A stretch of DNA of 14,426 bases from Dehalococcoidales bacterium (GTDB lineage Bacteria; Chloroflexota; Dehalococcoidia; Dehalococcoidales; UBA3254), in assembly GCA_016926695.1 (NCBI GenBank), contig JAFGOB010000127.1, positions 1-14,426 on the forward strand, written 5' to 3'. The stretch's first letter is position 1; every line of letters begins with the position of its first letter. Positions 789 to 14,191 of the stretch are shown here, in pieces. A program made the translations under genes and the position numbers. The notes below the pieces were generated by a model. That model did not search any database. It had not been told where the DNA came from and saw nothing but the letters and a program-made list of their open reading frames with translations.

Positions 789-818
789 TTGACAAAATAG
801 ACCTGCAAATGCTAACTT
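789..818 (+). promoter_or_regulatory. Putative sigma-70-type promoter of the liv operon
   Basis: A perfect TTGACA (-35) lies at 789-794. Eighteen bases downstream is a weak -10, TAACTT (813-818). A second TTGACA at 756-761 has no good -10. An imperfect dyad, TGCTAA-N5-TTAGCA (810-826), overlaps the -10 and could be a further protein site. Predicted transcription start is about 825-830, immediately ahead of the shared operator. The -35 is convincing; the -10 is not. Confidence 0.45.
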
Positions 819-830
819 AATTAGCAATAC

Positions 831-849
831 TACCTAGAACCTCTAGGTA
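831..849. promoter_or_regulatory. Operator copy 1 (TACCTAGA-N3-TCTAGGTA), liv operon
   Basis: Eight-base arms are perfectly complementary around a three-base centre (ACC). The same arms recur at 6985-7003 and, with one mismatch, at 10317-10335, each time at a promoter of a metabolic gene here. Position just after the -10 suggests repression by a dimeric regulator. The regulator is not encoded in the window, and the site is not one I can match to a named family. Confidence 0.8.
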
Positions 850-889
850 TTGAGTCCGATAAGGAGCGTCATTCTGCAATGTAATTCCA

Positions 890-934
890 GGGGTACGGTT
901 TTTCCCGCTTGCAGGGCAAGATCAACCGTACCCC
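890..934 (+). promoter_or_regulatory. Hairpin in the liv leader
   Basis: GGGGTACGGTT (890-900) is perfectly complementary to AACCGTACCCC (924-934). The 23-base loop can form a smaller inner stem (CTTG 908-911 with CAAG 917-920). A short second stem, AAACAG/CTGTTT (958-963/967-972), runs into a T-tract ending at 975, before the livG start. The order, strong stem then weak stem plus T-run, would allow attenuation or RNA protection. The stems are seen; the function is inferred. Confidence 0.5.
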
Positions 935-988
935 GGATAAATAATAGTGGAGAACATAAACAGGACCTGTTTTTTCAGGCCTGAAGTT

Positions 989-1759
989 ATGGAGAATCAG
1001 GATAAAACCTTATTGCACTTGCAAGACTTGAGCCTGTATTTTGGGGCTGTCAAATCCCTTGAAAAGGTGCGTTTTTCTGTTCAAGAAAATGATATTCTGG
1101 CCATCATCGGTCCCAATGGCGCCGGTAAGACCAGTGTTATCAACTGCGTTACCGGCTATTACCAGCCGCAAAACGGTCAGATTTTCTTCAAGAAACAAAA
1201 CATAGCCGGACTGCCACCCAATAAAATTGCCAGGATGGGGATCAGCCGTACCTTCCAGAACCCGACCACCTATCCAAGCATGACCACACTGGAAATATTA
1301 ATGGCAGCCCGCTACATGCACACCCGCTCAAATCTCCTGGAAAACCTGATTTACCTGGGAAGAAGCCGCCGCGAGGAAATAGAGAGCCGCCGGAAAGCCG
1401 AGGAAATCATCAGTTTTACCCATATTGAAGACCTGCGAAAGAAGCCTATCGGCATGTTATCTTACGGCCAGCGAAAGCAGGTCGAGATTGCCCGGGTCCT
1501 GACGATGGAACCTGAACTTCTGCTGCTGGATGAGCCGATGAGCGGGCTTGATGACGTAATGAAGGAAATCATGACCGAGCTGATCATGAACGTGCATCAA
1601 AGCGGAACGACTATTGTCATGGTTGAACATGACATGCAATTTGTAATGGGTATTTCCCGTTCAATCGTGGTCCTTAACTTCGGTGAAAAAATTGCGGAGG
1701 GGTCGCCTGAGGAAATTTCACGGAATACCAGAGTGGCTGAAGCCTATCTGGGTAAATAA
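989..1759 (+). CDS. livG: Branched-chain amino acid-type ABC transporter, ATP-binding subunit LivG
   Basis: ATPase subunit of a Liv/HAAT-type importer, energising uptake through LivHM at the inner face of the membrane. Seen in the 256-aa product: Walker A GPNGAGKTS (41-49), Q-loop Gln90 in the LivG-typical RTFQN context, signature LSYGQ (157-161), Walker B LLLLDE (177-182) and switch His214 (VEHD). The C-terminal end AEAYLGK is characteristic of the family. An in-frame GTG at 947 would add 14 residues but has no ribosome binding site and lies close behind the leader hairpin. The ATG at 989, with a weak AGG upstream, gives the usual N-terminus and length. It is first gene of a tightly spaced operon, 11 bases before livH. 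A Liv-type system next to CoA-ester genes may carry another organic acid rather than leucine/isoleucine/valine. Confidence 0.93.
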   Translation: MENQDKTLLHLQDLSLYFGAVKSLEKVRFSVQENDILAIIGPNGAGKTSVINCVTGYYQPQNGQIFFKKQNIAGLPPNKIARMGISRTFQNPTTYPSMTTLEILMAARYMHTRSNLLENLIYLGRSRREEIESRRKAEEIISFTHIEDLRKKPIGMLSYGQRKQVEIARVLTMEPELLLLDEPMSGLDDVMKEIMTELIMNVHQSGTTIVMVEHDMQFVMGISRSIVVLNFGEKIAEGSPEEISRNTRVAEAYLGK

Positions 1760-1770
1760 GGGACAGTAAA

Positions 1771-2661
1771 ATGATAAATCTGACACAACTGGTGATGTCC
1801 GGGATAATGGTAGGCGCACTTTACGGTCTGGTGGCCATGGGCTTCGTTATGATCTACAGGGGCACCCGGGTTTTCAACATGGCCTACGGCCAGTTTGCAG
1901 TTATAGGGGCCTATATAGCCTGGACCTTCCTGGGATCGCCCAGCGCTCCCCGCCTGCCTTTACCACTGGCCCTTTTTCTGACTTTTCTCAGCTCGATAGC
2001 TTTCGGACTGTTAATCGAGCATTTTATTTTCCGGCGCATGATCGGCCGGCCGCTGTTTTCCACCTTTATCCTGTCTCTGGGGCTCTGGTCCATTCTTTAC
2101 GGCGTGGCGCTTCAGGCCTGGGGGCCAGAGCCAAGAGTATTTGCCTATTCTCTGCCCAAAGGACCGGTTAACCTGGGGTCTGTAGTGCTGGCCAAAGAAT
2201 ATATCTGGAGCTTCGGACTGGCGGTGATTATCCTGATCGCCTTTATGTTCTTCTTCCAACGTACCAAACTGGGACTGGCCATACGGGCCTCCTATGATAA
2301 TGAGGTTGCCGCCCGGTGCCTGGGAGTAAATGCCGGTACTAACTCGAAAATATTCTGGGTACTGTGCGCCCTGCTGGCTACCCTGGGAGGATTCGTTATC
2401 GCCTCCGCCCGCGGCGTCAGCCTTTCCCTGGGAGACCTGGTAATGGTGGTACTGGCCGTGGCATTGATGGGCGGACTGGACTCGCTGATGGGCTGTGTGG
2501 TAGGCGGGCTGATACTGGCAATTGGTGAGAACCTGGCCGGCTTTTATCTGAATTCGTTTATTCCAGGTATAGGCGGTATTTTTGGCATGATTCTGATATT
2601 ACTGGTGCTTTTAACCAGGCCCAGGGGGCTTTTCGGCGCCAAACCAATAGAGAGGGTCTGA
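1771..2661 (+). CDS. livH: Branched-chain amino acid-type ABC transporter permease LivH
   Basis: Integral membrane permease of 296 aa, the usual LivH size. Several hydrophobic segments are separated by short loops. The N-terminal half has the family-typical GALYGLVAMGFVMIYRGTRV (residues 15-34) followed by a FNMAYGQF motif, and a conserved cytoplasmic segment RTKLGLAIRASYDNEVAARCLG lies near residues 165-186. This Glu-Ala-containing loop is the region that contacts the ATPase in this transporter class. The ATG follows the livG stop by 11 bases, with GGGACAG as a modest ribosome binding site. It pairs with LivM to form the translocation path. Family assignment is secure; substrate is not. Confidence 0.93.
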   Translation: MINLTQLVMSGIMVGALYGLVAMGFVMIYRGTRVFNMAYGQFAVIGAYIAWTFLGSPSAPRLPLPLALFLTFLSSIAFGLLIEHFIFRRMIGRPLFSTFILSLGLWSILYGVALQAWGPEPRVFAYSLPKGPVNLGSVVLAKEYIWSFGLAVIILIAFMFFFQRTKLGLAIRASYDNEVAARCLGVNAGTNSKIFWVLCALLATLGGFVIASARGVSLSLGDLVMVVLAVALMGGLDSLMGCVVGGLILAIGENLAGFYLNSFIPGIGGIFGMILILLVLLTRPRGLFGAKPIERV

Positions 2662-2664
2662 ACG

Positions 2665-3720
2665 TTGCCTGCAAGAGGGAAATTGAGAAAAGACTATACC
2701 AGGGAGGTTGCCCTGATACAAACCCGGGGGCAATGGGCTGCCCTGCTGGTCTTCATGGTCATTCTGATTATACTCCCCTATGCACTGGTGCAGTCCAGCA
2801 ATATGGCCTGGCTGAGCTTCGTCAACTTTACCATGATCACCATTGTAGCGGTCCTGGGGCTGAATGTGACTACCGGAATGGCCGGACAGGTGAGCATGGG
2901 CCACTCGGCTTTTGTGATGGTAGGCGGCTATATTACCGCTATTTTAACAACACAGTTCGAATGGGCATTCTGGGCAGCGCTGCCGTTGGCCTCGATCCTT
3001 ACCGCCGTTATCGGACTCCTGGTAGGAGCGCCCTCGGCCAGGATAAAAGGTTTCTACCTGGCAGTCGCCACCTTCGCCTTCTTCTTTGTAGCCCAGTTTA
3101 TCATAAAAAACCTGGACATCGCCGGAGGAATTAACGGGATCATCGGCATTCCGGCGCCCTGGATCGGAGGACTGAAGATTAACACCGATCTTGAATGGTA
3201 CTTTCTCCTGCTGGGAGTACTGATAATTAGCTGTCTGCTGTCCTCCAATTTAATACGCTCCCGGTTAGGAAGAGCTTTTATGCTGGTAAAAAATAATGAT
3301 ATCACGGCCAGCAGCATGGGAATTGATGTATACCTGACCAAACTGAGCTCCTTTTTTATCGGGGCGCTGCTGGGGGGTCTGGCCGGAGGCCTGTGGGTAA
3401 GCTATGTGACGGTGGTCAGGGCCGATCAGTTCATCATCTGGGACTCAATCTGGTACCTGGGTATGATAATCATCGGCGGCGCCGGGTCAACCACCGGGGC
3501 GATACTGGGAGTAATAGCCCTGCGTTTACTCAGCCAGGTAGTGCATGTAGTAACCACCACCGGAGTCTTCGCTGCTATGAGCAGCAGCCTTTCGGTAACA
3601 CTGAACTATATCCTGTACGGCCTGGTGATTGTGCTCTTTATTTCGCTTCAGCCGAACGGGCTGCTGGCTATGTGGAACAAGATAAAGCTAAACTATAAAC
3701 GCTGGCCTTTCGGCTATTAA
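2665..3720 (+). CDS. livM: Branched-chain amino acid-type ABC transporter permease LivM
   Basis: Second permease, 351 aa, with multiple membrane segments and the LivM hallmarks: LGLNVTTGMAGQVSMGHSAF (near 64-83), PSARIKGFYLAVATFAF (near 123-139) and the ATPase-contact segment SRLGRAFMLVKNNDITASSMGID (near 199-221). It starts with TTG at 2665, three bases after the livH stop; GAGAGGG upstream can act as ribosome binding site. A second in-frame TTG at 2683, behind AGAGGG, is an alternative that removes six residues. Non-ATG initiation with close spacing suggests translational coupling to livH. The C-terminal tail is basic and probably cytoplasmic. Confidence 0.93.
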   Translation: MPARGKLRKDYTREVALIQTRGQWAALLVFMVILIILPYALVQSSNMAWLSFVNFTMITIVAVLGLNVTTGMAGQVSMGHSAFVMVGGYITAILTTQFEWAFWAALPLASILTAVIGLLVGAPSARIKGFYLAVATFAFFFVAQFIIKNLDIAGGINGIIGIPAPWIGGLKINTDLEWYFLLLGVLIISCLLSSNLIRSRLGRAFMLVKNNDITASSMGIDVYLTKLSSFFIGALLGGLAGGLWVSYVTVVRADQFIIWDSIWYLGMIIIGGAGSTTGAILGVIALRLLSQVVHVVTTTGVFAAMSSSLSVTLNYILYGLVIVLFISLQPNGLLAMWNKIKLNYKRWPFGY

Positions 3721-3732
3721 GGACTGTGGGAT

Positions 3733-4503
3733 ATGCTGGTTTTGAATAATATCGAGGCGGTCTACGGGGGGGTGGTACTGGCGCTGAGCGAGGTATCGCT
3801 GAAGATCGAATACGGCCAGGTGATGGTACTGCTGGGAAATAACGGCAGCGGCAAATCAACGACCTTAAAGAGCATATCCGGCGTGCTGAAAACCGAAGAA
3901 GGGAAGCTGACCGAAGGCAGTATCGAATTTGAAGGCCGGCGCATCGATAACCAGACGCCTGAAAAAATAGCCAGGTTGGGCATTTGCCATGTCCTTCAGG
4001 AACGCTCGGCATTCCTGAACCTGACGGTAGAAGAAAATCTGCAAGTAGGAGCTTACCTGCGCAAGGATAAACCAGCAATAAAAAGGGATATGGAAAAAGT
4101 CTATGAGTACTTCCCCCAACTGGTAAACCGCCGTCAGCAAAAGAGCGGCTATCTCTCCGGCGGCGAGCAACAGATGCTGGTCATCGGAAGAGCTTTGATG
4201 GCCCGCCCCAAATTGATAATGCTCGATGAGCCTTCGCTGGGACTGGCTTCCGGACTGGTAATCGAGCTATTCAGGATACTGAAACAAATCAACCTACGGG
4301 AGAAGACCACGCTCCTGATAGCTGAGCAAAATGCGGCTGTCTCCCTATCCATAGCCGATCACGGGCTGATCCTGCAAAACGGTAAGGTGGGTTTCAGCGG
4401 TACAGCGGCAGAGCTTATGGACCGCAGCAACATCAAGGAGTATTACCTGGGAGAAAAATCCGAAGAGAGTGAGAACCTGCTGAAGAAGGTATTTTTCAGA
4501 TAA
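3733..4503 (+). CDS. livF: Branched-chain amino acid-type ABC transporter, ATP-binding subunit LivF
   Basis: Second ATPase, 256 aa. Seen: Walker A GNNGSGKS (35-42), Q-loop Gln89 (HVLQE, where LivF proteins often have VPEGR-like sequence), signature LSGGE (141-145), Walker B LIMLDE (161-166), and Gln199 in the IAEQN switch position, where most ABC ATPases have His. The Gln is normal for LivF. The tail after YYLGEKSEE (from about 236) is slightly longer than usual and basic. The gene follows livM by 12 bases and is last in the operon; a strong hairpin lies 20 bases beyond its stop. It forms the ATPase pair with LivG. Confidence 0.93.
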   Translation: MLVLNNIEAVYGGVVLALSEVSLKIEYGQVMVLLGNNGSGKSTTLKSISGVLKTEEGKLTEGSIEFEGRRIDNQTPEKIARLGICHVLQERSAFLNLTVEENLQVGAYLRKDKPAIKRDMEKVYEYFPQLVNRRQQKSGYLSGGEQQMLVIGRALMARPKLIMLDEPSLGLASGLVIELFRILKQINLREKTTLLIAEQNAAVSLSIADHGLILQNGKVGFSGTAAELMDRSNIKEYYLGEKSEESENLLKKVFFR

Positions 4504-4522
4504 AGACGGTATAATAGCGGCT

Positions 4523-4551
4523 CGGGATCGTCCCGGAGCGGGACGATCCCG
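4523..4551. terminator. Hairpin between convergent livF and substrate-binding gene, probable bidirectional terminator
   Basis: CGGGATCGTCCC (4523-4534) and GGGACGATCCCG (4540-4551) form a perfect 12-bp stem with a five-base loop, placed exactly between two convergent stop codons. There is no proper T-run on either side (CCTTATCTTAC on the plus side), so intrinsic termination may be imperfect. It may act mainly as a 3'-end stabiliser. Confidence 0.65.
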
Positions 4552-4568
4552 CCTTATCTTACTTTACA

Positions 4569-5945
4569 CTATTTATCGATTCCTTCAAAAATCCTGGGCA
4601 ATGTAATCCAATCGCTTACTGACTCGGTCCCTGTTTTTGTGTAACAGGATATTTTCATGGTAGAAACACCCATACGTCTGGTATCGCTATATCCCAGTGC
4701 TCCCACGTTCCCAGCGGTATCAATATCCGAAAGCCTGGTCAGAGCGTTGTACAGGGCCTCGCCGTCGAGCTTGTCCGCACCTACGTCCGCGGCGGCCTGT
4801 TTCACAGCCGCTGTCAGGACTGCCTTGACATTCAACGTCAGGCGGTTGTCACACCAGCGGTCATCACCCGTGTTAATCTTCCAGATCTCACTCCACAGTT
4901 TGGAAGCTTCCGATCCGTCGGCAGCCGGACTTTCCGAACGGGTCTGGTAAAAGCCTTCAGCCTCTTCACCTACCAACTCCAGTAATTTATCCGACTCGGT
5001 CCATTCCATAAAAACAGGTTTAATCTTACCTGAAAGACCCAGACCGCGGAAATCGCGGATGATGACGGCGGCCTGCTGGTTATTGGCCTGTATCCACATA
5101 TAGTCGGAGCCCGCATCCCGTAAGGTCATAAGCTGGGGTTTTACGTCCAGCGCGGCCATGGAATAGGGTGCTGTGGCTATGATATCGACGCCTTTGTTCC
5201 GCACATAATTTTCTGCCAGCTTCCAGGAGAGACCTGAGGGTAAATCAATGTGCAGCATGCCAATTTTAGGCTTGCCTTCACCCTGCCAGTCGTTCACGAT
5301 CCATTCGGAGAGAGCGGCAAATCCGTCGGCGGTAGCCATTGAAACGCCGAATACGCGCCCCGGCGGCACATACATACGGCTGTCCAGGGCTGATGTAACG
5401 ATAACCGCAGCTTTGTCCTCTATGAAGGCATCGCGCAGCCCCAGCATATAATAGTCTTCCACGGCAATATAGATATGGGGTTTATAGGAGTCGCGCAGCT
5501 CTTTATAGGCCATCACCGCACCATCAGGAGTACCCTTATTGTCCACAATTTTCCAGTCCAGCTTTATGCCGTCAATTCCGCCCTCGTTCTCATTGACATA
5601 CTTGAAAACATATTGAAATTCCTTCATTATGGCATTTACAGCCGGAGCGGCAACTCCGGTAAGACCGCCCGTCAGTCCGATTCGCAGCGTAGTAGCAATT
5701 GCCGGCGCAGACGAAGCAGGGGGAGGGGGAGGAGCCTTGGATGTCGAGGGAGCCTGCGCTGGCTTAGCAGCAGTAGATGCCGGCGGGGCCGAGGCCGGTT
5801 GTGAAACCGGCGGCGCCGATTTGGCCGGAGCAGGAGCAGGGGCTGATGATGTTGTTGGGGTAGATTCACTACAGGCTGTTAAGGAGACGATAAATACCAG
5901 GCAGAGAACGACCGCAAGACTGATTGATACAATTTTTTTATGCAT
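4569..5945 (-). CDS. Extracellular substrate-binding lipoprotein, Liv/type-1 periplasmic-binding family
   Basis: Captures the ligand outside the membrane and hands it to a Liv-type permease. The 458-aa product has a lipoprotein signal: positive start MHKKI, hydrophobic core, lipobox LTAC with Cys25. A Ser/Pro/Ala/Lys-rich linker follows to about residue 85, then the Peripla_BP_6-type domain beginning LRIGLTGGLTG, with the usual alternating segments through NAIMKEFQYVFKYVNE and VTSALDSRMYVPPG. The linker resembles cell-surface tethers in anaerobes lacking a conventional periplasm. The ATG has GGAGG with a seven-base spacer. It is the probable partner of LivGHMF but is transcribed separately and convergently, and I see no copy of the shared palindrome upstream. 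AT-rich sequence with a TTGACA (6036-6041) precedes it, without a clear -10. The ligand is unknown. Confidence 0.9.
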   Translation of the reverse strand: MHKKIVSISLAVVLCLVFIVSLTACSESTPTTSSAPAPAPAKSAPPVSQPASAPPASTAAKPAQAPSTSKAPPPPPASSAPAIATTLRIGLTGGLTGVAAPAVNAIMKEFQYVFKYVNENEGGIDGIKLDWKIVDNKGTPDGAVMAYKELRDSYKPHIYIAVEDYYMLGLRDAFIEDKAAVIVTSALDSRMYVPPGRVFGVSMATADGFAALSEWIVNDWQGEGKPKIGMLHIDLPSGLSWKLAENYVRNKGVDIIATAPYSMAALDVKPQLMTLRDAGSDYMWIQANNQQAAVIIRDFRGLGLSGKIKPVFMEWTESDKLLELVGEEAEGFYQTRSESPAADGSEASKLWSEIWKINTGDDRWCDNRLTLNVKAVLTAAVKQAAADVGADKLDGEALYNALTRLSDIDTAGNVGALGYSDTRRMGVSTMKISCYTKTGTESVSDWITLPRIFEGIDK

Positions 5946-6074
5946 TTATTCCTCCGCACTTATACTCATAACCAGTGTCATATTTATAAAAGTTGCTTAA
6001 AAAATATTTTCACTTCACTGTTTTTATTTTTATCCTGTCAATGGAGAGGAAAGAGGATATGCCACAGCCAGGTA

Positions 6075-6932
6075 CTAGGAATAGAAGGATATTCCGCACA
6101 TCGGACCGGTAGTACTGACCATAACCGGGGAAAATTCGGTTAAGTAGACCTCAGAGCACCGGTATCTGGATGTGATCAGATCTTTCAATTTTTCGGCATC
6201 TTCCCTGCAATTTGAATAGTGAACAATTACATGCAGGGGTTTACGGGTATCCGAATATTCTTTTACCAGATCGACCAGCTTGGGGATGGCGTTTTCCTTT
6301 CCTCTCACACGCGAGATGACCTCAATAAAGCCGGAATCATCAATAAAGCCGATAATCGGCTTGATGTTCATCATATCGCCGAATCCGGCGCCCTTTAAAG
6401 CGCGGCCGGTCTGAATCAAATACTTCATGGTCTCAATTGACGAAAGGTAAATTACTCTTGAGCTGATGTCCTGGACAACGCTTTTGACCTCTTCCAGGCT
6501 CTTACCGGCTTTGGCTGCCCGTGCCGCTTCCAGCACGATAAATCCCAGCGCTCCCGCCGAGCTCCGGCTGTCGACAATTTCAATATTCAGTTTGCTGTTA
6601 TTCTGCGTCCTGATAATTCTGCGGGCCAGATAAGCCGATTCCTGTGTGGCCGTTAATACTTTGGAGACCAGAATGCAGACGATATTATCGGTAACCTTGC
6701 CCAGCTCAGAAAAAATACTCATGAATTCCCCCGGACTGGCCGCAGTAGTGGTGGTCTTCCACTCCTGGTCTTTGAACATATCCAGAAATCCCTGGCAGGT
6801 TATATCGATGTTATCACGATAGACTTTATCTTTGATTACCACACCGACGGGCACCACGGATATCTCAAGCTCCTTGATTAATTCCGGCGGCAGGCAATGC
6901 GTACTGTCGGTAACAATTTTAACTACTGAAAT
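6075..6932 (-). CDS. DegV-family (fatty-acid-binding) protein, probable ATT start
   Basis: DegV proteins bind a long-chain acyl group; FakB members present it to the kinase FakA. Seen here: N-terminal VKIVTDST (residues 4-11) typical of the family, TTTTAASPGEF in the acyl-binding region, an INIKPIIGF-like segment, and a C-terminal TTGP motif. An ATG at 7040 lies in frame but upstream of the predicted promoter -10 and the operator, so it should not be in the mRNA. The only well-placed ribosome binding site, AAGGAGG at 6939-6945, sits six bases before an ATT (6930-6932). Starting there gives 285 residues and the family's normal N-terminus. ATT initiation is rare (known for infC). No FakA is encoded in the window. 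It is 129 bases from the binding-protein gene downstream and has its own operator-controlled promoter. Confidence 0.85.
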   Translation of the reverse strand: MSVVKIVTDSTHCLPPELIKELEISVVPVGVVIKDKVYRDNIDITCQGFLDMFKDQEWKTTTTAASPGEFMSIFSELGKVTDNIVCILVSKVLTATQESAYLARRIIRTQNNSKLNIEIVDSRSSAGALGFIVLEAARAAKAGKSLEEVKSVVQDISSRVIYLSSIETMKYLIQTGRALKGAGFGDMMNIKPIIGFIDDSGFIEVISRVRGKENAIPKLVDLVKEYSDTRKPLHVIVHYSNCREDAEKLKDLITSRYRCSEVYLTEFSPVMVSTTGPMCGISFYS

Positions 6933-6977
6933 AGCTGCCCTCCTTGTTTTAATACAATCTATCCGGGTACATAGCTC

Positions 6978-7010
6978 ATCAAGATACCTAGAAGTTCTAG
7001 GTATCTTGAT
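6978..7010. promoter_or_regulatory. Operator copy 2, perfect 33-bp palindrome, degV
   Basis: The core TACCTAGAAGTTCTAGGTA (6985-7003) has the same eight-base arms as the copy before liv. Here symmetry extends further: the 16-base arm ATCAAGATACCTAGAA (6978-6993) is exactly repeated in reverse complement at 6995-7010, with one central base. It starts at the predicted transcription start and lies between promoter and ribosome binding site, a classic repressor position. Confidence 0.85.
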
Positions 7011-7017
7011 AGATAAT

Positions 7018-7047
7018 TTAATACCACACTGGAATCGCACTTGTCAA
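7018..7047 (-). promoter_or_regulatory. Putative promoter of degV
   Basis: On the minus strand, a perfect TTGACA (7042-7047) is followed after 18 bases by TATTAA (7018-7023). Predicted start of transcription is about 7010, directly at the edge of the 33-bp palindrome. This placement is the main argument against the in-frame ATG at 7040. Confidence 0.6.
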
Positions 7048-7122
7048 ATGGTTTTTTATCGTTCCGGGGTCTCCGGCCCGGTCCGGCATGCGGCGCGAAA
7101 AATCAGATACAATTATTATCTA

Positions 7123-7884
7123 TTATTTAGTGGAGCCCATTGCCAGTCTGGAGACCCCACCGTCAACCACGAAAACGCCGCCGGTGATGTAATCGGACTC
7201 CGGCAAAGCTAAAAAGACGACCACAGCGGCGATATCCTCGGGCTTCCCCAACCTTCCCCAGGGAATAACGCGCAGAGACCTTTCTTTCATGGATTCCGGG
7301 ACAGCCCCGGAATCGATGGTTCCGGGACAGATAACATTGACATTAATCCCGAAGGCTGCCAGCTCCACTGCCATGGCTTGCGAGAGGGATTTCAGACCGC
7401 CCTTGGTGGATACATAGGACGCCATCAAAGGAGGACAGCCCCCGCCTCCCCCCGAAGCAACCGAGGAGATGTTGATGATACGGCCGCCGCCGTTCTTGAT
7501 CATATTTTTGGCTGCCGCCTGCGAGCAGAGGAATGCTCCTTTGATATTGACGCCGTAAACCCTGTCCCAGTCTTCTTCAGTCAGGCGAACGAAAGGCTTG
7601 ATTACCCCGTATGCCGCATTGTTAACCAGAATATCCACTCTGCCGAACTCCTCGATTGTTTTCGCGACCATCTCCTGGACTTCGGCTTTCACCGAAACAT
7701 CGCACTTTACGGCAATAGCCTTGCCGCCGGAGCCCTGTATTTCAGCGGCCACAGCCCGGCAGTCCTCCAGATCAACATCGCAGATTACCACAGATGCCCC
7801 TTCGCGGGCCAGAGCCGCGGCAATAGACTTTCCGATGCCCCTCCGGGAACCTGTAATGATAGCGGTCTTACCGGATAATCTCAT
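7123..7884 (-). CDS. Short-chain dehydrogenase/reductase (SDR), likely hydroxyacyl-CoA dehydrogenase
   Basis: NAD(P)-dependent oxidoreductase of the classical SDR family, 253 aa. Seen: cofactor motif TGSRRGIG (11-18), Asp36 at the end of the second strand (favours NAD), NNA at 88-90, Asn113, Ser141 in INISS, Tyr157 and Lys161 (YxxxK), and CPGTI after the active site. A run of five Gly (145-149) extends the substrate loop. It is last gene of the dehydratase operon, 15 bases after its neighbour's stop, with GGAG upstream of the ATG. The context suggests oxidation or reduction of a 3- or 2-hydroxyacyl-CoA or an alicyclic hydroxy-CoA, as done by BadH-like or FabG-like enzymes. The exact substrate is inferred from neighbours only. 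Confidence 0.9.
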   Translation of the reverse strand: MRLSGKTAIITGSRRGIGKSIAAALAREGASVVICDVDLEDCRAVAAEIQGSGGKAIAVKCDVSVKAEVQEMVAKTIEEFGRVDILVNNAAYGVIKPFVRLTEEDWDRVYGVNIKGAFLCSQAAAKNMIKNGGGRIINISSVASGGGGGCPPLMASYVSTKGGLKSLSQAMAVELAAFGINVNVICPGTIDSGAVPESMKERSLRVIPWGRLGKPEDIAAVVVFLALPESDYITGGVFVVDGGVSRLAMGSTK

Positions 7885-7899
7885 TTCCTTTTACTCCTC

Positions 7900-9153
7900 T
7901 CACTGGTCCCGCCGGTCATCCAGCAGCTCCAGAAATTGCTCCACCCTGTCCGTGATTTCCTCCTCGCTGACCACGGTGGCATCAGCCATATCGCAGTCCA
8001 CCACCAGCATGGGAACATCGATCCCGGCCAGGGCGTCCTTAATAATCTTGATAGTTGCGCAGGTCTGGCGGCAGCCCAGATGCGCCCAGTAAATCGCCCC
8101 TTCCGCTTTGTACTCAAGGGCCTGCCTGACCATTCTATCGGCCACCCCCTTTAGCGGCCCCGTATCCGTAAGAGCAAAGGCCTTGTCAGCCAGACTTTCG
8201 AGCGGCCTGGAGGGATCGATCTCAGCCTCAGCCCAGAGGGACAGATGCGGTTCGGCTACCATCGAGGCATGGTACTCGGTCTCCATGGTATTAAGAAATT
8301 TCCAGAGATAGCCGGGATAGAAAAAGAAATTCATAAGCCTGTAATTCTCCGCAGGCCGGACCGGTTTTTGCATCTCGGCCTTCATCTCGTCCCTGATAAC
8401 CTCGTAAAAGTTCACCAGCTCGGGAGCCCCGGACAGCAGAAGCTGGGCCAGTGTCATTTCGATCAAATGGTGGCTGCGCATGGGGGAAGGAACAGACTTT
8501 CTCAACTCGCAGATTTCGCGGAAGACCAGCGTGGAACGGCGGGTATTCTCCATAACTTCAGACAAACGGTCATAGTCCATCTTGCGGTGCGAGAGGTCTT
8601 CCAGGAAACAGATCATACCCTCCAGCTCCCGTTTATAGTACCGGCGGTCTTCCGGAGTATCATGGTAAGGCCTATCCAGGTATAAACCCGGCCGGTCATA
8701 GGTCTGCGTCAGGTAATCTCCGGTTTTGGCTGTTAAATCGCAGACCAAGTTGCTCCAGATAAAGGCATCCGCCCGGGGTAACCATCCCTGATAGGTCATG
8801 GCATTCAACAGACGGTGTCCCGAGCATATTTCACCGGCGAAACCGGCTGTTTTGGCCACGGCAAAGGAATCTTCCAGGTCAAGCATGCGCGCCATGATCT
8901 CCCCGGTACCCTCCAGGTACATGGGGATAATATCCATGGCATAAAGCAGCTCGGTGGGGACAAATATGGTATGCCCGACAACCAGCCGTTCCTCTTCACG
9001 GGCCTTCTGTACCTTTTGAAAACATCCGGCCAGCAATGAATAATACAGCCATTCGCCCTTCCGGTCAGACTGGTTCCGGCACATGCGGGCCAGCATCTCC
9101 AGGATGCGTACGACCTTGTCGAATTTGGCTTTATCTATGGTAGTGACTTTCAT
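7900..9153 (-). CDS. 2-hydroxyacyl-CoA dehydratase / benzoyl-CoA reductase-type subunit, 417 aa
   Basis: Resembles the D-component (HgdB/BcrB-like) family that carries a [4Fe-4S] cluster and eliminates water from 2-hydroxyacyl-CoA, or reduces aromatic CoA esters, by ketyl-radical chemistry. Seen: an N-terminal helical part, the PTELLYAMDIIPMYLEG segment (67-82) matching the family's PxELxxAxGxxP pattern, and a C-terminal half ending HLGCRQTCATIK (358-369) then a VVDCDMAD strand end. Cys110, Cys138 and Cys361 are the best candidates for cluster ligands by spacing. The ATG overlaps the previous stop (ATGA), indicating translational coupling and a 1:1 heterodimer with the upstream subunit. Whether it is a dehydratase or a reductase cannot be told by eye. 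Confidence 0.85.
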   Translation of the reverse strand: MKVTTIDKAKFDKVVRILEMLARMCRNQSDRKGEWLYYSLLAGCFQKVQKAREEERLVVGHTIFVPTELLYAMDIIPMYLEGTGEIMARMLDLEDSFAVAKTAGFAGEICSGHRLLNAMTYQGWLPRADAFIWSNLVCDLTAKTGDYLTQTYDRPGLYLDRPYHDTPEDRRYYKRELEGMICFLEDLSHRKMDYDRLSEVMENTRRSTLVFREICELRKSVPSPMRSHHLIEMTLAQLLLSGAPELVNFYEVIRDEMKAEMQKPVRPAENYRLMNFFFYPGYLWKFLNTMETEYHASMVAEPHLSLWAEAEIDPSRPLESLADKAFALTDTGPLKGVADRMVRQALEYKAEGAIYWAHLGCRQTCATIKIIKDALAGIDVPMLVVDCDMADATVVSEEEITDRVEQFLELLDDRRDQ

Positions 9154-10298
9154 CGGGCCGTCCTCCCTTCCAGCATCTCAAAAAAGGCCTGCAGCCGTGT
9201 GGTGATTTGCCCGGTACCGCCCATACCGTACTCGATATCCAGCTCCAGAACGGGCAGACCGATCTCTTTAAGCAGGTCCCTCACCAGGGGCTGTTCCATG
9301 GTCTGAGGTACGCAATATCGTACCATCTGTGCTATCACAGCCTCAACCCGGTAATCTTTAACCAGCCGCACGATGCGCTGAAGGCGGTCATCGGATGGCT
9401 CCATGCGCGGACAGGCAAAATTGTGCAGGTAGCGGCGGGAGAGGGCCTTCACCGGGTCGGCATCCGGGTCGACTCCTTCCCACCAGTAACGCACCCCGGT
9501 GCAAAGCTCGTCAATAACAACCAGACCGCCCTGTTCCTCTATAGCCCGGATGAAGGCCGCATTATTCAGAGGGGAACCTCCTATCATGATTCTGAACCTG
9601 CCTTTGACCCGGCGCGGATTCGCCTTGAGATCCTTCAACAATCGCTCCAGAAGGTTGTTGAACTGATCGGGTGGAACGGTTACACTGGCGTTAAGAATAT
9701 CCATCAGTTCGCTTCCTTTAAGGGGCGGACTATCCAGCTTGTTAAGGTCATATAATTCGCGCAAAAGCCTGCGCCTCTGGTTATAGAGGGCAATGGCATC
9801 CTGTAGAGCATCCGCAGTAATGGTCACATTCAGGTATTCGGATAATCGTTCCATGAAGCGGCGCAGCTCGATCTCATAAAGCTCGTATGCCTCCGGAGAG
9901 ATTTTCCGCGGCACCCCGATGGTATGAATAAAAGGTGTGAAGCTATAGTGTTCCCAGACATCCGCCAGACGGCGGGAACAATCGCAGGTAGCACCGGCTG
10001 CGAATCCATCCAAAAAGTTGTAGCGGCCTTTCAGCACAAGCTCCAGGCAATTCCTGATAAATGAACAGGTATTCTGGTACATATAAGCGTTGGCTTCATC
10101 ATAGTTGGATATCCCTGAATCGCCGACCAGCCGGACCGGCAGGGCTCCCGCCGCATAAATGATCTCTTCGGGAACATAGGTACATTCAAAAGCTATAATC
10201 TTTTTCCCGGATTTCTTCCAATCCCTTATGGCAGCATTATCCGGGGATAAAGTACCCAGGGTTTGTAGTTCAACCAGAGCCGCCGGGACTTCGTTCAT
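9150..10298 (-). CDS. 2-hydroxyacyl-CoA dehydratase / benzoyl-CoA reductase-type subunit, 382 aa
   Basis: Partner subunit of the same superfamily (HgdA/BcrC-like size). Seen: YVPEEIIYAAGALPVRL (41-57), the best-known family motif; CSFIRNC (78-84); ATCDC (103-107); IGGSPLNN (239-246) opening the second domain; DELCTGVRYWWE (263-274); and Cys329 (RYC) near the C-terminus. Cys78, Cys105 or Cys107, and Cys329 are plausible [4Fe-4S] ligands. It is first gene of the operon: the ATG has GGGAAGGAG with a six-base spacer, and operator copy 3 ends 17 bases upstream. These enzymes need an ATP-hydrolysing activator (HgdC/BadF type), which is not in this window, so it must be supplied from elsewhere. Confidence 0.87.
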   Translation of the reverse strand: MNEVPAALVELQTLGTLSPDNAAIRDWKKSGKKIIAFECTYVPEEIIYAAGALPVRLVGDSGISNYDEANAYMYQNTCSFIRNCLELVLKGRYNFLDGFAAGATCDCSRRLADVWEHYSFTPFIHTIGVPRKISPEAYELYEIELRRFMERLSEYLNVTITADALQDAIALYNQRRRLLRELYDLNKLDSPPLKGSELMDILNASVTVPPDQFNNLLERLLKDLKANPRRVKGRFRIMIGGSPLNNAAFIRAIEEQGGLVVIDELCTGVRYWWEGVDPDADPVKALSRRYLHNFACPRMEPSDDRLQRIVRLVKDYRVEAVIAQMVRYCVPQTMEQPLVRDLLKEIGLPVLELDIEYGMGGTGQITTRLQAFFEMLEGRTAR

Positions 10299-10314
10299 TT
10301 GAATCTCCTTCCCA

Positions 10315-10337
10315 TATACCTAGAGATTCTAGGCATA
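10315..10337. promoter_or_regulatory. Operator copy 3 (TACCTAGA-N3-TCTAGGCA), dehydratase operon
   Basis: Core 10317-10335, with one mismatch in the right arm (GGCA for GGTA). Two flanking bases on each side extend the symmetry to 10315-10337. It lies between a TTGACA element and the ribosome binding site of the first dehydratase gene, the same arrangement as at liv and degV. Confidence 0.75.
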
Positions 10338-10350
10338 ATATATAGAAATA

Positions 10351-10380
10351 ACAATAAATCACTACTCCAACGGATGTCAA
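10351..10380 (-). promoter_or_regulatory. Putative promoter of the dehydratase-SDR operon
   Basis: On the minus strand, TTGACA (10375-10380) is followed after 18 bases by TATTGT (10351-10356). Predicted transcription start is about 10344, just ahead of operator copy 3. Other AT-rich -10 candidates (TATTAT at 10335-10340) would overlap the operator. Confidence 0.45.
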
Positions 10381-12374: not shown

Positions 12375-12983
12375 TTATGCTGTAAGAGATTCAAGTAGCC
12401 TGAAAAGCCGGTCGCAGTATCCAGCTTTTTTTCTAATTTCCTGAGGATCTACCAAAGCCAGCAAATCCGCTCCATGTTTGATCTTGGCATACTCACCTTT
12501 CTGTGTGTTTTTTGAAGCACTCTGTAAAGAAATATATAGTCTGGCCTTTTCAATTAGCTCTACGTCAATAGTGTTTGGAATCGCACCAGCATTGAATCCT
12601 TGTCCGTAGTATTTGGCGAGTGCCGCTTTATCAGCAATTAACCATGCTTCCATCGTTTGTGCTATTAGTTGATAATGGTCTTCCGTGCAAACAAGTTCCC
12701 AGTTATCACTGTCCTTCAAATGCTGTTTTACATTTTTGGTAACTTCACGTTCCGCATCTACTAACATGATATTAAAAGCCTGCGGGTGACTTTGGATCGC
12801 ATTTTTAAAATCATCAAAACAGTTTTGCCGGGATCCGGACGCAATAATATTCCAACGAATTCCCTTATCTCGCACAATTTCAACTATCTGTCTAAAGAAC
12901 TTGGAATACCCCATGCGAAACGTTGCTTTTGTTTCCCTTTCATCCCCTCCACCCTCGATATAAATTCGGATTTCTTTTACCAC
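12375..12983 (-). CDS. DUF4276 family protein, putative Toprim-like effector
   Basis: The 202-aa product matches the DUF4276 pattern: IYIEGGGDE (7-15) at the N-terminus, IIASGSRQNCFDDF (46-59), MLVDAERE (73-80), then DHYQLIAQTMEAWLIADK and a YAKIKHGADLLALVDP segment. Glu10 and Asp76/Glu78 sit where Toprim-fold nucleases have Glu and the acidic DxD-type pair, so a metal-dependent nucleolytic role is plausible but inferred. It starts with GTG; the codon overlaps the end of the upstream ATPase gene, and GGAGG lies six bases before it, so the two are translationally coupled. Comparable ATPase plus Toprim-like pairs (PARIS AriA/AriB, RloA/RloB, Gabija, OLD) defend against phage. Base composition is more A+T-rich than the metabolic genes, suggesting acquisition. 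Confidence 0.8.
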   Translation of the reverse strand: MVKEIRIYIEGGGDERETKATFRMGYSKFFRQIVEIVRDKGIRWNIIASGSRQNCFDDFKNAIQSHPQAFNIMLVDAEREVTKNVKQHLKDSDNWELVCTEDHYQLIAQTMEAWLIADKAALAKYYGQGFNAGAIPNTIDVELIEKARLYISLQSASKNTQKGEYAKIKHGADLLALVDPQEIRKKAGYCDRLFRLLESLTA

Positions 12984-14191
12984 GGATTACCTCCAAGTTC
13001 TCCCATCCGCCAGAGGTCACCCAGGCTGTATTTCTTTAGCCAGGATTCTAATTGCTTTTGATCTAGCCGCCTTAATGTCGTTCCCTTACTATCACGTTCA
13101 CACACAACAATATTTTCGGGATCTCCACTTAATGCAGAAACAAGTGCATCAGAATGTGTGGTAACTATTAGCTGTGTTCGATTGGATGCTGTTGTCAGTA
13201 ATTCAGCAATATTCTTTAATACATCCGGATGCAGGCTCAATTCTGGTTCTTCGATACATATAAGAGGAGGCGGTGTAGGATGGCACAATATAGCTAATAG
13301 GCATAAATACCTTAGAGTACCGTCTGAAAGTCTTGTTGCAGGTATGGGTTCATTAAGTCCTTTTTCATGTAAGAATAATTGAACTGTACCTCCTTCTATT
13401 TTTGTCGTAAAATCTTCGATATTATGCGCAAATTGTTTAAGGTTATTTAGCAGTTCTCTTTTAGTCCCTTTATGTTCCATGGAATTTAATACCAAAGCCA
13501 GGTTACTCGCGTCTTCTAATAAGAAATCCTGGGGTAAATCCGCTTTCTGAGGCAGCCGGGGTGGGGTGTACCGACCCAGGTCCCATTCTCGATATAACTT
13601 TATTTTGGAGAGGTTATTGCCTATGAAAGTTAATTCGGGATATTGGTCAGGATCTTTTCTTTGTGAAAGAACCGATTGCTGTAAATCTATATCTTCTCTC
13701 TTGAGGTGGCGGGTAAAGGAGCTGTAGGTTGCATCTTTGTTCGTTACATCTCTAACATTTAAAGTTGGTAATCCATTATCATAGCGATAATAAAAATATA
13801 CATCATCCTCCCATTGATTCTTCTTATCCTTGTTTTCAAGAAGCTCATTGACCAATTCCAGGCGTTGTCCGACCATCGTAAAACAAAGTTTATATCTCAA
13901 TGGTTGCGGACCAGGAGGATAATCAACAATTACATTTATTTGAGCAATCGGGATTGTTTTTGATCCCTTCCATAACCATTCACTCACACCACCCCCAAGG
14001 CGTATCGGACTGCCCAAATCACTGGGGGCTGAACGTAGTATGGAAAATGCCTCTACGAGATTTGATTTGCCTGATAAATTAGGGCCTATCAGGACATTAA
14101 GAGACCTTAGTTCTGTTTCCTCACTTTCAGGCCCATAAGAAAGAAAATTGTTTAATTTTATGTTTTTGATAAAACACTTATCATTTATCAT
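12977..14191 (-). CDS. AAA/ABC-type ATPase (AAA_21, OLD/RecF-like), putative defence sensor
   Basis: The 404-aa product has the RecF/OLD-type ATPase plan: N-terminal strand IKLNNFLSYG, Walker A GPNLSGKS (36-43), long middle insertion (about 60-280) with helical and beta parts, signature LSDGT (288-292), Walker B LICIEE (310-315) with PELSLHP after it, and His346 in TTHSD. It ends about 60 residues later with no Toprim domain of its own; the following gene provides one as a separate chain. Start ATG at 14191 has AAGGGG nine bases upstream. Known relatives form oligomeric scaffolds that sense phage proteins and release or activate the nuclease partner. No phage data exist here; the defence role is inferred from architecture. 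Confidence 0.87.
   Translation of the reverse strand: MINDKCFIKNIKLNNFLSYGPESEETELRSLNVLIGPNLSGKSNLVEAFSILRSAPSDLGSPIRLGGGVSEWLWKGSKTIPIAQINVIVDYPPGPQPLRYKLCFTMVGQRLELVNELLENKDKKNQWEDDVYFYYRYDNGLPTLNVRDVTNKDATYSSFTRHLKREDIDLQQSVLSQRKDPDQYPELTFIGNNLSKIKLYREWDLGRYTPPRLPQKADLPQDFLLEDASNLALVLNSMEHKGTKRELLNNLKQFAHNIEDFTTKIEGGTVQLFLHEKGLNEPIPATRLSDGTLRYLCLLAILCHPTPPPLICIEEPELSLHPDVLKNIAELLTTASNRTQLIVTTHSDALVSALSGDPENIVVCERDSKGTTLRRLDQKQLESWLKKYSLGDLWRMGELGGNPW

What the first reader, a model, noticed from the sequence alone, without database searches (positions are those of the whole stretch)
831..10337. One palindromic operator shared by three promoters defines an undescribed local regulon
TACCTAGA-N3-TCTAGGYA occurs at 831-849, 6985-7003 and 10317-10335. 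Each copy follows a TTGACA element and precedes the first gene of a metabolic unit: liv transporter, degV, and dehydratase-SDR. Three 19-bp near-identical dyads in 14 kb, all at promoters and none inside a supported gene, are very unlikely by chance. The site links transport, acyl-binding and CoA-ester chemistry under one dimeric regulator that is not encoded in the window. I cannot match it to a named regulator.
Basis: seen in the sequence. Interest (0 to 1): 0.8.

Follow-up and report, generated by a model that had tools for sequence, protein, structure and literature searches.

The report
Shared switch for membrane-lipid genes
Three matching DNA control sites in this bacterial fragment belong to a conserved switch that, in related bacteria, sits in front of fatty-acid and membrane-lipid genes and in front of the gene for its own likely controller, a PadR-type repressor paired with a membrane protein; this may be how these little-studied bacteria tune their membranes.

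Summary
In detail: three 19-bp dyads (TACCTAGA-N3-TCTAGGYA) at 831, 6985 and 10317, each 42-45 nt after a perfect TTGACA, against 0.12 strand matches expected by chance. They are not a local curiosity. Among one Chloroflexota genome and its relatives the motif occurs in 21 of 61 genomes, the reversed control in 1. I assign 27 of those 33 sites to lipid or regulator units: a PadR-HAAS-DegV operon, FakA/FakB, PlsY, dehydratase-PlsX-ACP-FabG-FabF, and HGD/benzoyl-CoA-reductase-like clusters. Each window target has a counterpart carrying the site (liv operon: one genome only). Searching by gene confirms it: PadR promoters 22 of 30, PlsY orthologues 9 of 18 (11 at a looser cut), close dehydratase homologues 6 of 7 against 0 of 23 distant ones. 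Best explanation: operators of an autoregulated PadR repressor with a membrane HAAS partner, running a lipid regulon functionally like FapR; no FapR passed its cut-off in 13 genomes. The window's genome is not held, so its regulator is unseen; 3 of 21 motif genomes show no PadR orthologue. Binding, signal and repression are inferred.

The parts
789..794 (+). -35 TTGACA of the liv promoter (-10-like TAACTT at 813-818)
   Evidence: 42 nt before the operator
831..849 (.). operator 1 TACCTAGAACCTCTAGGTA, PWM score 25.0
947..1759 (+). LivG-like ABC ATPase, first gene of the liv operon (mechanical start; the true start may be the internal ATG near 991)
   Evidence: PF00005, PF12399; 55% id to the L047 gene that also follows the operator
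1771..4503 (+). rest of the liv operon: two permeases and LivF-like ATPase
   Evidence: PF02653 twice, PF00005
7042..7047 (-). -35 TTGACA of the degV promoter (-10-like TATTAA at 7023-7018)
6985..7003 (.). operator 2 TACCTAGAAGTTCTAGGTA inside a 33-bp dyad, PWM score 26.4
6075..6932 (-). DegV / FakB-type fatty-acid-binding protein; likely ATT start at 6932
   Evidence: PF02645 8.6e-62, TIGR00762; start inferred from Shine-Dalgarno and the L053 homologue
10375..10380 (-). -35 TTGACA of the dehydratase promoter (-10-like TATTGT at 10356-10351)
10317..10335 (.). operator 3 TACCTAGAGATTCTAGGCA, PWM score 22.1
9150..10298 (-). HGD-D subunit (HgdB / BcrC / BzdN-like)
   Evidence: PF06050 1.3e-96; below the cut-off of each of the 4 NCBIfam models matched
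7900..9153 (-). second HGD-D subunit (HgdA / BcrB / BzdO-like)
   Evidence: PF06050 1e-50
7123..7884 (-). SDR oxidoreductase, third gene of the unit
   Evidence: PF13561
10560..12182 (-). acyl-CoA ligase upstream of site 3; not shown to be under the operator
   Evidence: PF00501
4569..5945 (-). liv-type substrate-binding lipoprotein, convergent, no operator of its own
   Evidence: PF13458

Best explanation
The three dyads are operators of a PadR-family repressor (not on this contig) that runs a membrane-lipid regulon in this group of Chloroflexota. A PadR dimer binds TACCTAGA-N3-TCTAGGTA (half-site variant TACATAG) over or just behind the -10 box and blocks transcription of lipid genes and of its own gene. 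In relatives its gene forms an operon with a HAAS-domain membrane protein (6-9 hydrophobic segments) and often a DegV (FakB) protein, so the likely input is membrane or acyl-chain status relayed by HAAS, or an acyl ligand bound by PadR. In the window the controlled units are a liv-type uptake system, a FakB-like fatty-acid-binding protein, and an HGD/benzoyl-CoA-reductase-like enzyme with an SDR. Shown here: the sites, their promoter geometry, their conservation before homologous genes, and the site at PadR's own promoter in most loci examined. Inferred: that PadR binds it, repression rather than activation, the signal, and that the window's organism has this PadR.
For:: 3 places; 0 of 200 shuffles as many strand matches; 21 of 61 genomes with the motif, 1 of 61 with the control; 26 places in 11 genomes, control 0 in all 11 (9 of the 11 were chosen for having the motif); exact TTGACA 26-46 nt upstream at 38 of 58 sites (window included) against 379 of 11,600 random intergenic positions. 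Search by gene: PadR promoters 22 of 30 score >=16 and 26 of 30 >=10 (19 of these 30 trained the matrix); before training, 19 of 30 were within 3 mismatches, shuffles averaging 6-7. PlsY orthologues (46-100% id): 9 of 18 at >=16, 11 of 18 at >=10, all 11 at 39-46 nt before the start; 12 more distant PlsY: 0 at >=16, 1 at >=10. HgdB-like: 6 of 7 at >=46% identity against 0 of 23 at 27-38% (Fisher 1.2e-5); without the two genomes already known to carry the motif, 4 of 5 against 0 of 23 (Fisher 2.4e-4). DegV homologues of the window gene at 42-54%: 3 of 6 within 400 bp; of 24 more distant ones, 1 scores >=16 within 400 bp and 8 about 1.3 kb upstream, in 5 of these 8 beside a PadR hit. G276 and G239 carry PadR-HAAS next to the dehydratase cluster with the site between. 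HAAS PF22564: 9 of 9 partner proteins match at E<=1, one shown over cut-off. FapR: 0 of 13 genomes over cut-off.
Against: The window's own genome is not held, so its PadR is unseen. Three of 21 motif genomes (G413, G426, G434) show no orthologous PadR. G439 has four good sites and a PadR-HAAS-DegV operon (56% id) but no site at the padR promoter; G422 (L102) also lacks it. 20 of 40 genomes without a <=1-mismatch site still have a PadR at E<=1e-23. Across the whole class the <=1-mismatch pattern is only weakly enriched: 11 of 393 genomes against 5 of 393 for the control. FakA in general is not a target: of 30 loci examined (57 of 61 genomes have FakA) only the query's own locus has a site. The >=10 cut is loose: elsewhere in the gene-ascertained loci it gave 6, 0, 4 and 9 hits in 105,546, 122,360, 91,349 and 86,657 bp. 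Three of the 6 closest DegV homologues have no site within 400 bp, though one (L217) lies in the FAS unit under a site some 5 kb upstream. The liv target rests on one other genome; three weaker liv homologues score -0.7, 3.5 and 10.8. No binding data.
Confidence: 0.76

Rival explanations
1. The same lipid regulon exists, but the operator is bound by a different regulator (TetR-, MarR- or GntR-type), and padR is only one of its targets.
For: Three motif genomes show no PadR orthologue, and in G439 and G422 padR has no site. PadR operators read here (ATGT/ACAT with an 8-10 nt linker; TACT/AGTA in C. difficile, passages of PMC5050560) differ in sequence or spacing.
Against: padR operons are the most frequent target (9 of 33 sites) and padR lies beside the dehydratase cluster in G239 and G276. 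I noticed no other regulator recurring beside the sites, but the neighbours were not all annotated. A distant PadR (L026, 38% id) also has TACCTAGTTAGTCTAGGTA at its start. FapR 0 of 13 over cut-off. Completeness of the three PadR-less genomes is not told.
Confidence: 0.17
2. The dyads act as RNA hairpins in the 5' leader (attenuation, riboswitch or transcript stability), not as DNA operators.
For: Each could form a stem of about 8 pairs with a 3-nt loop; site 2 has 16 paired positions per arm. The window sites lie downstream of the -10.
Against: In many relatives the site starts 27-31 nt after the -35 start, overlapping or abutting the -10, so it would not be fully transcribed. Variants such as TACATAGAATGTCTAAGTA break the symmetric pair yet keep the other letters: sequence, not pairing, is conserved. 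No T-run follows in the window. No folding or Rfam search was run.
Confidence: 0.04
3. Chance matches or a dispersed repeat.
For: Class-wide, <=1-mismatch hits are only about twice the control, and some lie in ORFs (L072, L023).
Against:: far above chance, at promoters, before homologous genes; the three window sites have unlike flanks.
Confidence: 0.01

Closest known systems
HAAS-PadR dyad (mSystems 2024, PMC11237479; passages read, part of the abstract among them)
   Same: Standalone PadR winged helix next to a HAAS-domain membrane protein; proposed as an alternative to two-component systems for membrane signals.
   Different: In the passages read it is tied to PspC/Toastrack envelope stress, with no operator or lipid regulon named; here the dyad is linked to an operator and to fatty-acid and phospholipid genes.
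FapR lipid regulon of Bacillus (recalled; family model NF003359 tested)
   Same: One palindromic operator before fab, plsX and related genes, repressor autoregulated (recalled).
   Different: No FapR over cut-off in any of 13 genomes tested (two sub-cut-off matches in G413, 21.7 and 18.9 of 183 bits); candidate regulator is PadR; the regulon also holds FakA/FakB, HGD/BCR-like enzymes and a liv transporter.
Listeria LltR-Lmo0600 (Sci Rep 2019, PMC6624303; passages read)
   Same: Autoregulated PadR repressor with a downstream DUF1700 (HAAS-related) multi-spanning membrane protein.
   Different: In the passages read the strongest targets are its own operon; no lipid synthesis genes are mentioned there.
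Class I benzoyl-CoA reductase / 2-hydroxyacyl-CoA dehydratase (BCR/HAD) family
   Same: HGD-D subunits, with BcrA/BcrD-type activators in relatives.
   Different: Below the cut-off of the NCBIfam equivalogs matched; sits with PlsX and ACP in some relatives; the window unit has no activator gene.
PlsA/PlsR plasmalogen synthase (BCR/HAD family; PMC12838417 and PMC9702350, passages read)
   Same: A BCR/HAD-family anaerobic reductase used in membrane-lipid modification.
   Different: Architecture and sequence not compared here; only an analogy for what the HGD unit might do.

Membership tests
PadR family (candidate regulator, in relatives) | PF03551 winged helix over the curated cut-off | tested here: met
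   L020 94.1 bits, L026 83.6 bits, cut-off 27
PadR family (candidate regulator, in relatives) | Site at its own promoter | tested here: met
   22 of 30 gene-ascertained promoters >=16 (19 trained the matrix); also G357 and G391; not in G439 L210 or G422 L102
PadR family (regulator of this window) | A PadR gene in the window's own genome | not testable with these tools
   No whole genome held; the contig is 14,426 bp
HAAS-PadR dyad | HAAS domain protein adjacent to a standalone PadR | tested here: met
   PF22564 28.7 bits (cut-off 27) on L204; 9 of 9 partners match at E<=1, but L020 only 13.2 bits and L202 none at E<=0.001; 6-9 hydrophobic segments in these 9 by a Kyte-Doolittle script
HAAS-PadR dyad | HAAS relays a membrane signal to PadR | not testable with these tools
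   proposal in PMC11237479, no experiment here
FapR regulon | FapR protein (NF003359) in the genome | tested here: not met
   0 of 13 genomes over cut-off; in the 14 control genomes 1 over cut-off, B. subtilis among the 5 with any match
Lipid regulon (functional class) | Same operator before several lipid-synthesis units in one genome | tested here: met
   G439: dehydratase/PlsX/ACP/Fab, PlsY-GT2-FakA, DegV-FakA and HGD/BCR units, 4 sites
Benzoyl-CoA reductase (equivalog) | NCBIfam equivalog cut-off | tested here: not met
   window 9150-10298: BzdN 170 of 453.8, BcrC 160.8 of 421.15 bits
FakB (fatty acid kinase binding subunit) | DegV domain model and FakB1 equivalog | tested here: inconclusive
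   TIGR00762 231.5 bits over cut-off; FakB1 88 of 350 bits

The most novel reading that the evidence does not exclude
A HAAS-PadR pair is the master membrane-lipid homeostasis system of this Chloroflexota group: the membrane-embedded HAAS protein reads the bilayer and releases PadR from one operator that jointly controls fatty-acid synthesis, acyl-phosphate and phosphatidic-acid formation, fatty-acid scavenging, and a BCR/HGD-family radical enzyme that modifies lipids anaerobically (for example ether-lipid, plasmalogen-like or acyl-chain reduction), with a liv-type transporter feeding branched precursors.
Probability: 0.3. Interest if true: 0.82.

Novelty: new variant of a known kind. Interest (0 to 1): 0.62.

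Why it matters
The HAAS-PadR dyad has been proposed as a membrane-signalling alternative to two-component systems, but I found no lipid regulon described for it; here it gains an operator and a coherent set of targets, which makes the idea directly testable. It also gives a candidate lipid-homeostasis regulator for a group of Chloroflexota known largely from metagenomes (recalled), and places HGD/BCR-type radical enzymes, usually read as amino-acid or aromatic degradation, inside a membrane-lipid regulon, which may change how such clusters are annotated.

Tried and rejected
Two close-homologue loci from the genome-contig scan (L001 49%, L002 38% identity) carry no site around the dehydratase. 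The class-wide scan is near background outside the clade; I take several single hits in ORFs or beside unrelated genes (e.g. L012, L014, L015, and L003 and L004) as chance, by reading, without annotating each. FakA in general is not a target. FapR was tested and not found over cut-off. Literature: the searches showed no PadR-controlled fatty-acid regulon and no named owner of this operator; I saw listings only (the top rows of each), except passages of PMC11237479, PMC5050560, PMC6624303, PMC12838417 and PMC9702350. The motif-letter search matched 2,206 papers, of which I saw 20 rows, none relevant. PWM caution: it was trained on 19 PadR-promoter sites; window, PlsY, HgdB and DegV sites are outside that training set. 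The relatives were drawn around genomes (G308, G422) first found through the motif. Gene calls in relatives come from a longest-ORF script, so starts and small genes are approximate. The sorting of the 33 sites is mine, by reading: 9 PadR operon, 6 DegV and/or FakA, 3 PlsY, 5 HGD/BCR, 4 dehydratase/PlsX/FAS (in L059 only the two dehydratases are seen), 1 liv, 1 SDR, 3 a small membrane protein, 1 inside an ORF.
Full report
What is there. The window is a whole 14,426-bp metagenomic contig (one search lists its protein on a contig of that length); named protein relatives are mostly from Chloroflexi MAGs. No own genome is held. Each lies 42-45 nt after a perfect TTGACA with a plausible -10 between, so the operator covers roughly +1 to +20, a place for a repressor (transcription starts are inferred). 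Site 2 extends to a 33-bp dyad. Downstream units are a liv-type ABC operon, DegV, and two HGD-D subunits plus SDR.

Is it wider than the window? One genome (G308), found by scanning 393 genomes of the class of a Chloroflexi MAG (11 of 393 with a <=1-mismatch match, control 5 of 393), has an exact copy before a FakA gene and a 1-mismatch copy before an SDR-HgdB-HgdA-BcrA-BcrD-PlsX-ACP cluster homologous to the window's unit (50% and 43% identity for the HGD subunits). Among 61 genomes (G308 and relatives), 21 carry 33 places, against 1 genome for the reversed pattern. Reading all 33 (loci; genes), I assign 9 to a PadR operon, 6 to DegV and/or FakA, 3 to PlsY, 5 to HGD/BCR clusters, 4 to dehydratase-PlsX-ACP-FabG-FabF clusters or parts of them (their first proteins are 43-51% identical to the G439 dehydratases; in L059 no PlsX is seen), 1 to a liv operon (55% and 59% identity to the window's), 1 to an SDR, 3 to a small membrane protein, and 1 inside an ORF. 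In 11 genomes scanned with a slightly wider pattern there are 26 places and no control match; 9 of these 11 were chosen for having the motif, G439 and G239 for their dehydratase. G439 alone has four: before HgdB-HgdA-BcrA-BcrD, before two dehydratases-PlsX-ACP-FabG-FabF-SDR-DegV, before PlsY-glycosyltransferase-FakA, and before DegV-FakA. One further target, in G357, is PgfA-like, a lipid-trafficking family (112.7 bits, below the 160 cut-off).

Searching by gene, not motif. A matrix was trained only on 19 sites found upstream of PadR orthologues. It scores the window sites 25.0, 26.4 and 22.1; the next best place in the window scores 12.9. In 352,761 bp of gene-ascertained loci it gives 18 hits at >=16 and 26 at >=10, against 0 and 7 in one shuffled copy. 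Upstream 350 bp: PadR 22 of 30 at >=16 (training sites included); PlsY 9 of 30 at >=16 and 12 of 30 at >=10, 9 and 11 of these among the 18 hits at 46-100% identity, always 39-46 nt before the start; FakA 1 of 30, the query's own second-paralogue locus. HgdB homologues: 6 of 7 with >=46% identity have the site within 1.1 kb upstream, before the HgdB gene or the SDR ahead of it; the seventh has only 279 bp of upstream sequence; 0 of 23 distant homologues score even 6. Two of the 6 are in G308 and G422, known beforehand to carry the motif; without them it is 4 of 5 against 0 of 23. DegV homologues of the window gene: 3 of the 6 closest have the site within 400 bp; of 24 more distant ones 1 has it there and 8 have it about 1.3 kb upstream, in 5 of these 8 beside a PadR hit. 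The liv permease has one close relative (59%) in 61 genomes, and it has the site; three at 35-38% score -0.7, 3.5 and 10.8. Exact TTGACA lies 26-46 nt upstream at 38 of 58 non-redundant sites, against 3.3% of random intergenic positions. Two registers occur: start-to-start distance 27-31 (operator on or abutting the -10) and 34-45 (operator behind it).

The regulator. PadR homologues were found in 41 of 61 genomes at E<=1e-12; at E<=1e-23, in 18 of 21 motif genomes and 20 of 40 others (Fisher 0.011; my tally). Several genomes without a <=1-mismatch site carry the variant TACATAG...CTAAGTA at the padR promoter. In G276 and G239 padR lies beside the dehydratase unit with the site between or after padR-HAAS. 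The gene after padR encodes an N-terminal HAAS-like domain plus 6-9 hydrophobic segments: PF22564 matches all 9 members scanned at E<=1, one shown over cut-off. HAAS-PadR pairs were proposed in 2024 as an alternative to two-component systems for membrane signals (PMC11237479, passages). That fits a regulator of membrane-lipid genes. Against this: G413 and G426 have sites but no PadR found, G434 only a divergent one, and padR of G439 and G422 lacks a site; incomplete assemblies or promoter rewiring could explain it, but neither was tested.

How it probably works (inferred beyond the sites). PadR dimer on the operator blocks RNA polymerase; a membrane or acyl signal through HAAS, or an acyl ligand in PadR itself, releases it. 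DegV/FakB, FakA, PlsX and PlsY form the acyl-phosphate route to phosphatidic acid (abstract openings of PMC12594616 and PMC10146087 listed, the rest recalled), and the dehydratases, FabG, FabF and ACP make the chains (recalled). The HGD/BCR unit is the odd member: the BCR/HAD family includes plasmalogen synthase PlsA/PlsR (PMC12838417, passages), so a lipid-modifying role is possible; it was not tested here, and the window unit lacks BcrA/D activators. The liv transporter may bring branched-chain precursors (speculation).

Novelty. Autoregulated PadR repressors, HAAS-PadR pairs and lipid regulons such as FapR are each known kinds; their combination with this operator was not found in my searches. 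I rate it a new variant of a known kind.

Noticed in passing
6932 (minus strand): DegV seems to start at ATT, a rare start codon, behind a strong AAGGAGG; the mechanical GTG start at 7040 lies upstream of the operator. Could also be a sequence error.
   Followed up: partly
12375-14191: Two-gene unit: AAA ATPase (12977-14191, weak match to MADS3 antiphage ATPase, 73.5 of 420 bits) and a 202-aa partner without NCBIfam match; may be a defence-type ATPase pair.
   Followed up: no
399-710: Short 103-aa ORF, coiled-coil-like by eye, between the contig end and site 1.
   Followed up: no
L060:1042-1410, L062:5689-6051, L073:6093-6455, L201:5623-5970: A conserved 115-122-aa small membrane-like protein (46-63% identical to the L073 copy) recurs right after the operator in four genomes; the L073 copy has no Pfam or NCBIfam match.
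   Followed up: partly
L026:1199-1217: A distant PadR (38% id) followed by a 278-aa protein with 4 hydrophobic segments has the same core TACCTAG-N5-CTAGGTA overlapping its start, so the operator code may be wider than this clade.
   Followed up: no
L199:4146-5291, L067:6668-7816, L069:2858-4006, L021:10566-11711: A glycosyltransferase (53-59% identical to the L199 copy; L199 HpnB-like, 165.9 of 379 bits) sits beside PlsY under the operator; may be a glycolipid step.
   Followed up: partly
L020, L063, L066, L068, L070, L071: Several padR promoters have two or three operator copies, one near the gene and one about 300-350 bp upstream with its own TTGACA promoter.
   Followed up: no
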